Assembly: GCF_003402975.1 (NCBI RefSeq)
Contig: NZ_QURB01000012.1
Span: 1 to 49,732 of the forward strand
Reading direction: 5' to 3'
Length of the DNA stretch: 49,732 nucleotides
Source: Brumimicrobium aurantiacum
Lineage (GTDB): Bacteria > Bacteroidota > Bacteroidia > Flavobacteriales_D > Crocinitomicaceae
Position numbers and translations under genes: made by a program. The notes beneath the pieces were generated by a model that saw only the letters and a program-made list of their open reading frames with translations, was not told the origin of the DNA and searched no databases. Positions 5,792 through 31,636 of this stretch are shown here, in pieces (position 1 is the first letter of the stretch; the number at the start of each line of letters is the position of its first letter).

Positions 5792-5829
5792 TTGTTCAGT
5801 TTTACGTTTGTTTAAAAGTCTTATACATC

Positions 5830-5845
5830 TGAACCAAAAGGTTCA
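5830..5845 (-). promoter_or_regulatory. Candidate SOS-type operator upstream of dinB
   Basis: A perfect inverted repeat TGAACC-AAAA-GGTTCA lies 39-54 nt upstream of the dinB start. On the minus strand it overlaps the end of TGTATTTG, which differs by one base from the Bacteroidota -7 box TANNTTTG. A repressor bound here would block initiation. The half site GAAC/GTTC resembles LexA boxes of other phyla, but the spacing (6 nt) differs from the Bacillus type (4 nt). The regulator is not in this window. Confidence 0.4.
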
Positions 5846-5980
5846 AATACATGTAAAACTGCATATCGTTTTGGGTAGTAGAAATTTGTGTTTTTGGCAC
5901 TTGTTTTTACGCTTACAAATGTAATAAATGTTTATTTACTAATCTATATCTTGATTAGAATTTAATCAATTTTGGTTAGA

Positions 5981-6023
5981 TTAGGTTAGGTTAGGTTAGG
6001 TTAGGTTAGGTTAGGTTAGGTTA
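5981..6023. repeat. Microsatellite (TTAGG)8
   Basis: Eight perfect copies of TTAGG plus a partial ninth, preceded by a degenerate GGTTAGA. It lies about 190 nt upstream of dinB and directly beside the CGC-rich repeat that holds the IS110 element. The unit equals the insect telomere repeat, but the setting is plainly bacterial. A pentameric tract like this is prone to length change by slippage; it is outside any gene. Confidence 0.9.
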
Positions 6024-6117
6024 ATTCCACGTTAATCTGCGTTATAACATATCACTCCACACTCCATCAGCGTCCACAACACCAAAGGCGGCTCTCTGCG
6101 AAATCTTAGCGTTCTCC
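6024..6117. repeat. Left part of CGC-rich dispersed repeat, split by the IS110 element
   Basis: Contains spaced CTGCG, GCGTCC, GGCGGC, CTCTGCG and TTAGCGTTCTCC motifs. Joined to 7528-7540 across the insertion it reads TTAGCGTTCTCCGCGGTTAA, which matches the style of the repeats at 31621-31961. No gene is supported here. Confidence 0.6.
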
Positions 6118-6125
6118 TATGTTTG
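6118..6125 (+). promoter_or_regulatory. -7 box of a promoter formed only in the circular IS110
   Basis: TATGTTTG matches the Bacteroidota -7 consensus TANNTTTG exactly and is the first sequence inside the left end. In the joined (circular) form the right end supplies TTTG at 7504-7507, exactly 20 nt upstream. In the integrated state the equivalent position (6094-6097) reads CTCT, so the promoter would be weak or off. Confidence 0.55.
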
Positions 6126-6131
6126 TAATTC

Positions 6132-6310
6132 AATATATTTGAAGATAAATAAGATGAAAAGGAATGAGAGCTAATTTGCGAACAAGCAACCTTAAAGGTA
6201 TGTTCACGCGGAGAGATTGCCTCATTCCTTCTCAATTTCTTAGAGTTTGAACAGAATGTAAGGAATGCTACAATGTGGTATATCCAGAATGACCGATCAG
6301 TAGAAAAAAC
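6132..6310 (+). ncRNA. Putative IS110 bridge RNA
   Basis: This noncoding left end can fold into a 10-bp perfect stem (6159-6168 with 6221-6230, AAGGAATGAG) closing a 52-nt loop, followed by a second structured region. The first loop contains CGCGGAGA (6207-6214), complementary over 8 nt to the right target junction TCTCCGCG. The following region contains ACAGAAT (6251-6257), identical to the right end of the element (7517-7523). These are the expected places for target-binding and donor-binding guides in a bridge RNA. The left target guide is only partly matched (6 of 10 positions) and I could not find a convincing right donor guide. Both RNA ends are estimates. Confidence 0.5.
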
Positions 6311-6358
6311 GGAGGGAAATGATTCATCTTATTCTAATATTAATTAAAAATTCATATT

Positions 6359-7405
6359 ATGGATATTGTAAAACAAGCAGTAGGCATTGATGTTTCTCAA
6401 AAGGAACTAGTGGTTTGTTTAGGTAGAATGGATTCAGATTTTACACCAGAACTCTACGCTCACAAGGTGTTTAATAATACTGAACATGGCTTTAAAACAT
6501 TATTGCTTTGGGTTAAAACACACACTTTAGAGTCGATTAAACTTCGTTTTGTGATGGAAGCTACTGGAGTGTATCATGAGTCTTTTGCTTACTTTCTAGA
6601 TGAAAAAGGTTATGAATTAAGCGTAGTTTTACCCAATAAGATCAGTAATTATATTCGTTCGTTTAACTTAAAATCAAAAAATGATAAATCTGATTCTAGG
6701 GCTATTGCAATGTTTGGCTTGGAAAGAAAACTTGATAGCTGGCATAGACCTAAACCAATTTATAGAGAGATGAAGCAGCTTACTCGGGAACGAGATCAAG
6801 TACTTCATGAACGAACAATGGTTAAGAATCAACTACATGCAGAAAAAGTAGAAGCTCACCCTAACAAGCGTTCAATAGAGCGTTTAAACGAACGAATTAA
6901 ACTTTTAAATAGTCAAGAAAAAGAAATAAAAACAGAAATAAGTGATTTAATAAAGGCGGATAATTTGATTCTTGAAATAGTTGGCATCATCTGTACCATA
7001 CCAGGAATAGGCTTGGTAACCGCAGCAATTATTCTAGCTGAAACCAATGGTTTTGAATTGATCAAAAATAAAAGACAATTAGTTAGTTATGCTGGATTAG
7101 ATGTAAGAGAGAGGCAGTCTGGAACCTCAATAAATGGTAAAGCTCGAATAACGAAAAGAGGGAATAAACATTTAAGAAAAGCACTATACTTTCCAGCATG
7201 GACCGCAATAAGATATGATGAAAGATTTAAATTAACCTTTAGTCGACATGTGTCAAAACACGGTGTAAAAATGAAGGTAGGAGTTGTAATACAAAGAAAA
7301 CTACTAGAATTAGTGTTTGCTTTGTATAAAACGAGAAAACCTTATGATAAAGAGTATTTAAATGAATATGAAGAAGGTATGAAGAACAAAGTAGCTGTAG
7401 TATAA
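6359..7405 (+). CDS. IS110-family transposase (RuvC-like DEDD plus Tnp_20 domain)
   Basis: A complete 348-residue recombinase. The N-terminal RuvC-like domain shows the DEDD residues: D11 in GIDVSQ, E67 in VMEATGVY, and D109/D112 in NDKSDSRAIA. A coiled-coil linker (about 140-200) follows, then the C-terminal transposase-20 domain with IPGIGLVTAA and SYAGLDVRERQSGTSINGK, where the family's catalytic serine lies (S254 or S257). Length is normal and nothing is disrupted, so the copy may be active. In this family the enzyme works with an RNA made from the noncoding end of the element, which pairs with both target and donor. The start is the ATG after a short AT-rich leader. Confidence 0.92.
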   Translation: MDIVKQAVGIDVSQKELVVCLGRMDSDFTPELYAHKVFNNTEHGFKTLLLWVKTHTLESIKLRFVMEATGVYHESFAYFLDEKGYELSVVLPNKISNYIRSFNLKSKNDKSDSRAIAMFGLERKLDSWHRPKPIYREMKQLTRERDQVLHERTMVKNQLHAEKVEAHPNKRSIERLNERIKLLNSQEKEIKTEISDLIKADNLILEIVGIICTIPGIGLVTAAIILAETNGFELIKNKRQLVSYAGLDVRERQSGTSINGKARITKRGNKHLRKALYFPAWTAIRYDERFKLTFSRHVSKHGVKMKVGVVIQRKLLELVFALYKTRKPYDKEYLNEYEEGMKNKVAVV

Positions 7406-7537
7406 AAAATCAGAGGGTGGATTTATGAAAAAATCCTACCCTCTTAATAGGCTAGCTTAAAACTGCCATGAAAACAAATTTACGTAAAAAAAGCTAATGA
7501 AAATTTGTTTTCTAACACAGAATCTCCGCGGTTAACT

Positions 7538-7990
7538 CTAAATAATCACCTTCGTCGAATACTTCAACTCCTCTAAAACGATTTGTGATTCAATATCACT
7601 TACATTTGAAATAGATGCCACATCGTTTACCAAAAAGTCACGATACTCTTTGATACTCGAAAATCTAGCTTTGGCTAAAAAGTCATAAGAACCAGAAATG
7701 TGATAAAATTCAGTAATTGATTCTAGAGATTCCATTTGTTGGATGAATTCTGTTCGTTTCGAAACGTGATGGTCTTTCACAGTGAGATTTAAAAAAACGA
7801 CAATCGATTTTCCGAGTAAATCTGCATCCAATAGGGCAACATATTGTTTTATGTATCCCGCTTTTTCTAATTTTTTAATCCTTTCGTAGATAGGAGTAGT
7901 GGTTAAAGAAAGTTCAGAAGCCATTTCTTTAGCCGTCTTTAAACAGTCGGTTTGGAGAATTTCAAGGATTCGCTTATCAATATTATCCAT
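7538..7990 (-). CDS. Lrp/AsnC-family transcriptional regulator
   Basis: A 150-residue protein of normal length: an N-terminal helix-turn-helix (about 1-60, with TPIYERIKKLEKAGYI as the recognition region) and a C-terminal RAM/ligand-binding domain (about 65-145). Members usually form octamers and respond to amino acids. It is divergent from the arginine decarboxylase operon across 148 nt of AT-rich DNA with inverted repeats, so arginine-related control of that operon is the natural guess. The IS110 element sits only about 11 nt beyond its stop codon, so its 3' end or terminator may have been altered. Confidence 0.9.
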   Translation of the reverse strand: MDNIDKRILEILQTDCLKTAKEMASELSLTTTPIYERIKKLEKAGYIKQYVALLDADLLGKSIVVFLNLTVKDHHVSKRTEFIQQMESLESITEFYHISGSYDFLAKARFSSIKEYRDFLVNDVASISNVSDIESQIVLEELKYSTKVII

Positions 7991-17703: not shown

Positions 17704-18417
17704 ATGGAAAATTTATGTGGAATCCCAGCAGAAAAACTACCGTTTGAGTTTATGGGACTGTGTTTGCAAGAGCCTATGGCGATGGTTACCAATCTTTTGA
17801 TTGCCATAACTTGTTTTGTGATTTATTCAAAAATGAAAATTACTGAAACTAACTTCCAGAAAAACTGGAAATGGTTTTACTTCTTTTTTGGATTGAGTAC
17901 GTTTTTTAGTGGGTTTGGACACATGTTCTTTAATTACACTGGTTTTTATGGGAAGTTTCCAACATGGACTTTAGGGCTTATTTCTGCATTTTACGCAGGG
18001 AAGGCAATGATTAGTTTAAATGTTATTTCTCCAAAGTTGTATAAAGGGCTAATCCGTTTCTTAACTCTGAAATTATTTGTTTTTGCAATTCTTGCTATTT
18101 ATCAAAAATCATTTGTTTTTGTTATGGCTGATGCCGCAATTACTTACCTTTTCTTCTGTATGGGATTTGGAATCTATTATTGGAGAAAAGGGTTAACATC
18201 ATTTAAATATACGGTTTATGCTGTTTTGATTTTAATTCCTTCGATTTTTATCTTTACATTGCAATTAAATCCCCATTTATGGTTTAATAAAGAAGATTTA
18301 AGTCATGTAATTATGGTAACCACAGTAATTTTCTTTTATTATGGGGTAATAAGACTCAATCAAATTGATTTGGATCAACTAATTTCATCAAGGGAAATAA
18401 AATATGTCAACAAATAA
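17704..18417 (+). CDS. Multi-pass membrane protein of unknown function (possibly DUF6962-like)
   Basis: 237 residues with about seven hydrophobic helices separated by short loops, and no signal peptide. Aromatic clusters such as [14 protein letters not shown] and conserved-looking [11 protein letters not shown] stand out. It recalls small Bacteroidota membrane families, but I cannot name the function. It overlaps smpB by 14 nt, so the two are translated from one message. The promoter directly upstream is a good match to the Bacteroidota consensus. Confidence 0.7.
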
Positions 18418-30697: not shown

Positions 30698-31636
30698 ATG
30701 CAAAAAACGAGTGTGAAAATACCGAAGGTTGAAAGTGTAGATTATGCTTCTCACTATTCATTTTTAGGAAGTTGTTTTTCAGAACATCTATCTGCTAAAA
30801 TGAAGGAAAATGGTTTTACCGTTTCTGCGAACCCTTTTGGTGTGATTTTTAATCCAATTTCTTTGGCAGATTTACTTCTTGGAGACGATGAAGTACTCGA
30901 AGATTCCGTTTTTGAAAGAGATGGAGTGGCTTTGTCTTGGTTGGCCAATAGTACCTGTTTTACGTATGCTGAAAAGACTTTAAAAACACAACTCGTTGAA
31001 TTAAGAAAAGAGTTTTTAAATAGCTTGTCTTCTTCTAAAATATTATTTGTCACTTTTGGAACCGCTTGGGTTTATGAAAAGAATTCCACGCATCAAATTG
31101 TTGCAAATTGTCATAAAGTTCCCAATAAGAATTTTACAAAACGCCTATTGACAGTAGAAGAAATCACAGAAAAATGGAGTCAGCTTATTGAAAAACTAAA
31201 TTTAGAAAGTGATCTTAAACTCATTTTTACGGTCAGTCCAGTTCGACATGTTAAAGACGGCTTAGTAGAAAATGCACGTAGTAAAGCTGTTTTATTGAAT
31301 GCAGTTCATAAATTAAATGACAAATATTCGAATGTTGGTTATTTCCCCGCTTATGAATTGATGCTTGATGAAATGCGAGATTATGCATTTTACAAAAAAG
31401 ATGGCCTTCATCCTAACGAAATAGCGGTTGATGAAATTTGGAAGCGATTTAAGGAAGCTTATTTTACTGAACAAACAGACAGTATTTGTAAAGAATATGA
31501 AAAAATTCGAATGTTATTTGCGCATCGGTCATTACATCCAGCATCAGAAAAGGCGAAGGAGTTTGAATTGAATCGGGAGAAGAAGTTGGAAGATTTTAAA
31601 CTGCGATTTCCAAGTTTTAACCGCGGAGGTCGCTAA
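30698..31636 (+). CDS. GSCFA-domain protein
   Basis: 312 residues. The name-giving motif is FLGSCFSEH (22-30), with NPFGVIFNP after it; later DGLHPNEIAVDEIW gives the D-x-x-H of an SGNH/GDSL-like fold. Members are probably acyl-transferring or esterase enzymes of surface polysaccharides. AAGGAATT precedes the ATG. It is in an operon with the deacetylase gene. Its last codons (RGGR) run into a CGC-rich dispersed repeat, so the C terminus may have been altered by the repeat. Confidence 0.85.
   Translation: MQKTSVKIPKVESVDYASHYSFLGSCFSEHLSAKMKENGFTVSANPFGVIFNPISLADLLLGDDEVLEDSVFERDGVALSWLANSTCFTYAEKTLKTQLVELRKEFLNSLSSSKILFVTFGTAWVYEKNSTHQIVANCHKVPNKNFTKRLLTVEEITEKWSQLIEKLNLESDLKLIFTVSPVRHVKDGLVENARSKAVLLNAVHKLNDKYSNVGYFPAYELMLDEMRDYAFYKKDGLHPNEIAVDEIWKRFKEAYFTEQTDSICKEYEKIRMLFAHRSLHPASEKAKEFELNREKKLEDFKLRFPSFNRGGR

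What the first reader, a model, noticed from the sequence alone, without database searches (positions are those of the whole stretch)
6132..6310. Candidate bridge RNA with a loop complementary to the target
The noncoding left end folds into a perfect 10-bp stem with a 52-nt loop. CGCGGAGA in the loop complements the right target junction TCTCCGCG over 8 nt, including the core. In the next region ACAGAAT equals the right end of the element (ACAGAATgT against ACAGAATCT). This is the bridge RNA architecture known from IS621, here in Bacteroidota. The left target guide is weak (6 of 10) and a right donor guide was not found.
Basis: partly seen in the sequence, partly recalled or inferred. Interest (0 to 1): 0.75.

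Follow-up and report, generated by a model that had tools for sequence, protein, structure and literature searches.

The report
Bacteroidota IS110 element's bridge RNA
A jumping gene in a Bacteroidota bacterium carries a bridge RNA that names both its landing site and its own ends; this is an already known kind of system, here well supported by comparison of relatives, with a sister-species copy whose right guide and landing site differ together.

Summary
Window 6114-7525 is an IS110-group element (transposase 6359-7405, CT core) in a genome of the genus of Brumimicrobium oceani. Its left end encodes a two-loop bridge RNA whose core is 6148-6332 (finding: 6132-6310). From one sequence the evidence is modest: of 2000 shuffled left ends, 119 hold a 10-bp stem and 75 an 8-nt junction complement. 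Comparison settles it. Across 35 left ends, 32 of 37 pairs show two-sided changes. Guides match their own targets far beyond permutation: left 193/245 against mean 99 (n=35), right 124/135 against 49 (n=27), 0 of 20000 each. A 98%-identical element in B. oceani sits about 23 bp away in the corresponding intergenic region, with right guide and right target changed together. A congener keeps the empty site. The missing right donor guide is AGGAG in 32 of the 35; the window has AGTAG. The joined ends form a Bacteroidota-type promoter in 23 of 27 elements. New member of a known kind. The window copy may be impaired (weak left guide, right donor guide mismatch). Expression and activity are untested.

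The parts
6102..6115 (+). left target flank ending in the CT core (AATCTTAGCGTTCT)
   Evidence: empty site in congener locus L061 reads AAATCTTGGCGTC-CT-CCGCGGTTAA
6114..6358 (+). left end (LE) of the IS110 element, core included, 245 nt
   Evidence: boundary shared by the 35 aligned left ends
6118..6125 (+). TATGTTTG, -7 box of the promoter formed when the ends are joined
   Evidence: TTG-N20-TATGTTTG (17) or -TATGTTTA (6) in 23 of 27 reconstructed junctions (no shuffled control was run); TAnnTTTG is the flavobacterial sigma-A -7 box (PMC9723704 passage)
6148..6332 (+). bridge RNA core, match of covariance model R1, 170.7 bits (window is one of the 35 sequences the model was built from)
6159..6230 (+). 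target-binding loop hairpin: outer stem 6159-6168/6221-6230 (consensus reaches 6171/6219), inner stem 6185-6191/6197-6204
   Evidence: helices 1 and 2: 8 of 10 and 7 of 7 pairs with two-sided changes
6175..6184 (+). left target guide (LTG), TTTGCGAACA
   Evidence: family permutation test; this copy matches 4 of 7 scored positions (6 of 10 overall)
6207..6214 (+). right target guide (RTG) CGCGG, core-pairing AG, handshake-type A
   Evidence: 5 of 5 against its right target and family test; AGA invariant in 35 of 35
6235..6320 (+). donor-binding loop, stems 6235-6240/6315-6320, 6245-6247/6308-6310, 6262-6269/6277-6285
   Evidence: helices 3, 4 and 6: 17 of 17 pairs with two-sided changes
6250..6259 (+). 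left donor guide (LDG), AACAGAATGT
   Evidence: matches the right end ACACAGAAT-CT; in distant relatives ending AGTACCT the guide reads AGTAC too
6299..6303 (+). right donor guide (RDG), AGTAG here, AGGAG in 32 of 35
   Evidence: mismatch at 6301 against the LE start CTCCT
6359..7405 (+). IS110 DEDD transposase/recombinase, 348 aa; D11, E67, D109, D112, S254
   Evidence: Pfam PF01548 and PF02371; IS621 and ISCro4 chains; residues located by motif
7406..7525 (+). right end (RE), ending ACACAGAAT + CT core; -33-type TTTG at 7504-7507
7526..7539 (+). right target flank, CCGCGGTTAACTCT

Best explanation
The left end of this IS110-group element encodes a bridge RNA with a core of about 185 nt. When the element is a circle, its joined ends make a Bacteroidota-type promoter that transcribes the RNA. 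The DEDD/Ser recombinase binds it. The first loop pairs with the two half-sites of an intergenic repeat around a CT core; the second pairs with the element's own two ends. Strand exchange at CT then inserts the element without a target duplication. Shown here by comparison: the structure, guide-target covariation, donor guide agreement, the empty site, and conservation of the promoter sequence. Inferred from IS621: circle formation, transcription, binding and catalysis. The window copy probably landed by this route but may now be weakened, because its right donor guide has one mismatch and its left guide fits poorly.
For: Transposase family. Conserved two-loop fold: 96.8% of cells paired against 82.6% shuffled, 32 of 37 pairs with two-sided change, covariation 0.543 against 0.254, none of 500 shuffles as high, slid versions at most 0.127. 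Model R1, built on 35, matches 8 of 10 tested loci not used to build it, E 2.6e-29 to 3e-6. Guide-target permutation: LTG 193/245, n=35; RTG 124/135, n=27; 0 of 20000 each. RTG 5 of 5 in 20 of 27 and 4 of 5 in 6 more. Window against B. oceani: right guide GG to AA with right target CC to TT, own-target RTG scores 5 and 4 of 5 against 2 and 3 when swapped. Five of 11 left-end differences fall in 18 guide positions of 245, hypergeometric P 0.0004 (segment chosen after seeing the alignment). Target guides have mean entropy 1.64 and 1.71 bits, donor guides 0.04 and 0.10. Empty site with a single CT in L061. One element present five times in one genome with one target motif. RDG follows the left terminus: complementary in 33 of 35, and CTCG/CGAG, CTCA/TGAG in distant relatives.
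Against: No RNA or recombination data. The window's LTG matches only 4 of 7 scored positions and its RDG has a mismatch. Swapping the left guides between window and B. oceani does not discriminate: own 4 and 4 of 7, swapped 3 and 4, although B. oceani's own LTG reaches 7 of 7 if G-U pairs are allowed. L004's right guide matches 0 of 5, L022's left guide 2 of 7, and the second G857 copy (L051) 3 of 7 on the left. The LTG score allowed a 1-nt register choice (also given to the permuted pairs). The structure tested was derived from the same alignment. The handshake rule of IS621 was not met on the donor loop: A in 33 of 35, where pairing to donor T is possible, and complementarity to target position 7 in 14 of 35, reached in 1888 of 20000 permutations.
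Confidence: 0.96

Rival explanations
1. The conserved left-end hairpins are a cis-regulatory leader or terminator of the transposase gene, and the match to the target is chance.
For: It lies just upstream of the gene; a single-sequence stem or 8-nt complement is not very rare in shuffles.
Against: The loop bases are among the most variable and follow each element's own target; the donor guides follow the element ends.
Confidence: 0.02
2. The window and B. oceani elements descend from one ancestral insertion; their guide differences are drift, not retargeting.
For: Both lie near the same genes, a dinB-like gene on the left and Lrp-like and arginine-decarboxylase-like genes on the right (names recalled from the sequences; no family search was run on them). 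Left guide swaps do not discriminate.
Against: Element identity is 1380 of 1412 while the right flank is 1402 of 1688. The insertion points differ by about 23 bp relative to the flanking gene (alignment offsets 2 and 25), and the empty site in L061 matches the window's point. Right-guide changes match right-target changes.
Confidence: 0.1
3. It was a working bridge RNA element but this copy is now defective.
For: RDG mismatch at 6301, weak LTG, one copy in the genome.
Against: Open reading frame with the catalytic residues, intact ends and promoter boxes, RTG 5 of 5. L007 carries the same RDG change, but its activity is unknown.
Confidence: 0.4

Closest known systems
IS621 bridge RNA and recombinase (IS110 group; PMC11208160, PMC11208158)
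   Same: Left-end RNA, target loop then donor loop, each 5' side matching the left half and 3' side complementing the right half, CT core, DEDD plus Ser recombinase, promoter at the joined ends, repeat-like targets.
   Different: Bacteroidota-type promoter in place of the sigma-70 type; right target guide of 5 nt plus core; own donor guide sequences (AACAGAAT, AGGAG); the donor-loop handshake position does not follow the IS621 rule in the register used here.
seekRNA of ISEc21 (IS110) and of ISEc11/ISXne4 (IS1111) (PMC11187229)
   Same: Non-coding RNA guiding a DEDD transposase; natural reprogramming between relatives already reported for ISEc11/ISXne4 (passage).
   Different: IS1111 members carry the RNA downstream and have subterminal inverted repeats; here it is upstream (LE 245, RE 120).
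ISCro4 transposase (PDB 9t56)
   Same: Closest solved relative by sequence, E 2e-38.
   Different: Its RNA was not compared here.

Membership tests
IS110 family (IS110 group) | DEDD RuvC-like plus Transposase_20 domains with conserved Ser | tested here: met
   D11, E67, D109, D112, S254 (located by motif and by the alignment to ISCro4)
IS110 family (IS110 group) | longer non-coding end upstream of the gene | tested here: met
   LE 245 against RE 120
IS110 family (IS110 group) | insertion at a short core without target duplication | tested here: met
   empty site with one CT in congener locus L061
Bridge RNA (IS621 type) | conserved structure with two internal guide loops | tested here: met
Bridge RNA (IS621 type) | target loop covaries with insertion site | tested here: met
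   (n=35 left, n=27 right)
Bridge RNA (IS621 type) | donor loop matches own ends | tested here: met
   RDG complementary in 33 of 35, LDG and RDG variants in distant relatives; in the window copy LDG met, RDG one mismatch
Bridge RNA (IS621 type) | handshake bases pair with the opposite DNA | tested here: inconclusive
   target-loop base is A in 35 of 35, facing the donor T; donor-loop base complementary to target position 7 in 14 of 35 only
Bridge RNA (IS621 type) | promoter formed at the circle junction | tested here: met
   sequence only: 23 of 27 junctions; -33 TTTG consensus is recalled, -7 box from PMC9723704
Bridge RNA (IS621 type) | RNA expressed, binds recombinase, directs recombination | not testable with these tools
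   needs experiment
IS1111 group | guide RNA in the right end | tested here: not met
   in the window the only strong model match is in the LE (E 1.6e-36); an antisense match to the same LE (E 0.0023) and one elsewhere (18125-18258, E 0.63) are the others
IS1111 group | long subterminal inverted repeats | not tested
   no search for them was run

The most novel reading that the evidence does not exclude
A Bacteroidota clade of bridge RNA elements moves between intergenic repeat families by frequent, concerted replacement of both target half-guides while donor guides stay fixed, and its donor-loop handshake works by a rule different from IS621. The Brumimicrobium pair would be a natural before-and-after of retargeting.
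Probability: 0.3. Interest if true: 0.5.

Novelty: new member of a known kind. Interest (0 to 1): 0.36.

Why it matters
It gives strong comparative evidence for bridge RNA logic in a Bacteroidota clade, with a structural model and guide positions for it, and offers close natural guide variants. How natural bridge RNAs acquire new targets could be studied with the Brumimicrobium pair. The Bacteroidota promoter detail may help use of such elements in those hosts.

Tried and rejected
Rfam search of 5800-7600 found no relevant family (one sub-threshold microRNA match). The viral contig scan found no relative. The plasmid search gave 5 records at 37-41% identity, two of which were fetched but not analysed further. 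Short model hits in G022, G028, G023 and G073 first looked like solo target loops; four that were read (L086, L087, L088, L090) are left ends cut by a contig end, and the others lie at or near contig ends by their coordinates but were not read. Donor-loop handshake covariation was tested and not supported. Sites like the window guide's ideal target, up to 2 mismatches: 24 in the 10 genomes of the genus against 5 for the reversed pattern, in the own genome 2 against 0; suggestive only. An outer closing stem (AAGATGA/TCATCTT type) seen by eye was not in the RNAalifold consensus and is not claimed. The script that located donor guides misplaced rows (L014, L015, L021, L029, L040, L048, L051), matched a downstream GGAG for L001 and L007, and looked for the RDG anywhere in a 55-nt stretch; one search uses alignment columns instead, for the 35.

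Rows dropped: of 53 loci with a hit, 10 under 45% identity, 2 without a left end and 6 duplicates were left out, giving 35; 8 of these had no usable right end and flank, giving 27 for RTG.

Papers: PMC11208160, outline, sections 5, 6, 7, 12 and passages; PMC11208158, passages and section 11; PMC11187229 and PMC9723704, passages; all others only search listings. Searches bearing on Bacteroidota bridge RNA; only one review was listed for the three terms (PMC12765450, not read). 'Bacteroid' does not occur in the main texts of PMC11208160 or PMC11187229. Supplementary files could not be looked up, so these elements may already be in those papers' tables.

Full report
The thing. At 6359-7405 is a 348-aa IS110 recombinase with both Pfam domains, related to IS621 and ISCro4 of known structure, with D11, E67, D109, D112 and S254 in place. 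The search of the own genome gave one match. The element runs 6114-7525 with CT at both ends.

The observation. By themselves they are modest: 119 of 2000 shuffled left ends hold a 10-bp stem and 75 of 2000 an 8-nt junction complement; 6119-6358 folds with z -2.46.

Relatives. Protein searches found matches in the own genome, 14 of 240 genomes of the family, 14 of 399 drawn from the order, 7 of 395 from the class, and 15 of 201, 2 of 249 and 2 of 64 in three further families, plus 6 loci in a named collection; these sets overlap. They gave 53 loci and 35 usable non-redundant left ends. Their alignment has a two-hairpin consensus of 37 pairs, 32 with changes on both sides. Against shuffles: 96.8% paired cells against 82.6%, 217 two-sided cells against 65.7, covariation 0.543 against 0.254, none of 500 as high; slid partners give at most 0.127. 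The structure was derived from this same alignment, which favours it over the slid versions. A covariance model matches window 6148-6332 at 170.7 bits (window is in the training set). Of 10 further loci not used to build it, 8 matched on the strand of the transposase gene with E from 2.6e-29 to 3e-6, one of them (L011) cut by a contig end; L017 and L020 gave none, and L020 has almost no left end in its contig. In the family, 16 of 240 genomes match, once in the own genome.

Guides. At fixed structural positions, LTG (7 scored nt, 1-nt register choice, same choice for controls) matches its own left target 193 of 245 against 99.1 sd 7.8 permuted; RTG (5 nt) 124 of 135 against 48.8 sd 6.1; neither reached in 20000 permutations. 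By element: LTG 7/7 in 9, 6 in 10, 5 in 8, 4 in 7, 2 in 1 (n=35); RTG 5/5 in 20, 4 in 6, 0 in 1 (n=27). Target guides vary (mean entropy 1.64 and 1.71 bits) while donor guides barely do (0.04 and 0.10). Where the ends differ in distant relatives, the guides differ with them: AGAAT to AGTAC for LDG, and CTCG/CGAG, CTCA/TGAG for RDG beside the usual CTCC/GGAG. Within the 35, RDG is complementary to the left terminus in 33; the two exceptions are the window and L007, both GTAG.

A natural retargeting pair. The B. oceani element is 1380/1412 identical, whereas the right flank is 1402/1688. Of 11 left-end differences, 5 lie in 18 guide positions (P 0.0004; positions chosen after seeing the alignment). 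The right guide changed CGCGG to CGCAA, and the right target differs as CCGCG and TTGCA: own scores 5 and 4 of 5, swapped 2 and 3. The left guides do not discriminate by exact matches: own 4 and 4 of 7, swapped 3 and 4; with G-U pairs B. oceani's own is 7 of 7 and the window's stays 4. The two insertions are in the corresponding intergenic region but about 23 bp apart (alignment offsets). A third congener, G003, keeps the window's site empty: AAATCTTGGCGTC-CT-CCGCGGTTAA. Of five congener regions read by eye, two (L061, L064) are full of short repeats of the CTCTGCGGTTAA type, so this looks like repeat targeting, as described for IS110 elements and REP sequences (PMC11208160 section 5). Natural reprogramming was reported before for ISEc11/ISXne4 (PMC11187229, passages).

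Promoter. Joining RE and LE gives TTG-N20-TATGTTTG or -TATGTTTA in 23 of 27 junctions (17 and 6). No shuffled control was run, and the same bases serve as donor sequence, so their conservation is not independent evidence. TAnnTTTG is the flavobacterial -7 box (PMC9723704 passage); the -33 TTTG consensus is recalled. The RNA would then be transcribed from the circle, as described for IS621 (PMC11208160 section 5).

What does not fit. The window's LTG is among the weaker (4/7, with seven other elements at 4 or less) and its RDG has a mismatch, so this copy may be impaired. L004's right guide matches 0 of 5 of its right flank. The donor-loop base after RDG is A in 33 of 35 while the known donor ends have T at position 7; in IS621 such pairing (G166A) reduced recombination (PMC11208158 section 11). 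Either the register or the rule differs here.

Verdict. An IS110-group bridge RNA, new member of a known kind, with confidence 0.96 for identity. Function is inferred by homology and covariation, not shown.

Noticed in passing
window 5974-6023: Tandem array of ten GGTTA units (telomere-like), left of the element.
   Followed up: no
window 31617-31636 and congeners: Dispersed intergenic repeats resembling the insertion site, e.g. TTAGCGACCTCCGCGGTTAA.
   Followed up: partly
L057 1238-1300: Duplication of the left terminus of that element, CTCCTATGTTTGCAAAGTAATTAATTCCTATGTTTG.
   Followed up: no
L019, L030, L045, L050 flanks; L029, L042, L056 flanks: Elements of differing identity share targets like TTTTTTGTTACT-TTTTT; three others share CCGAT-like left and ATCGG right targets.
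   Followed up: no
L018, L019, L024-L026, L031, L032: Relatives of about 40% identity end in AGTACCT or AGTATCT instead of AGAATCT, with donor guides that change likewise, least clearly in L031.
   Followed up: partly
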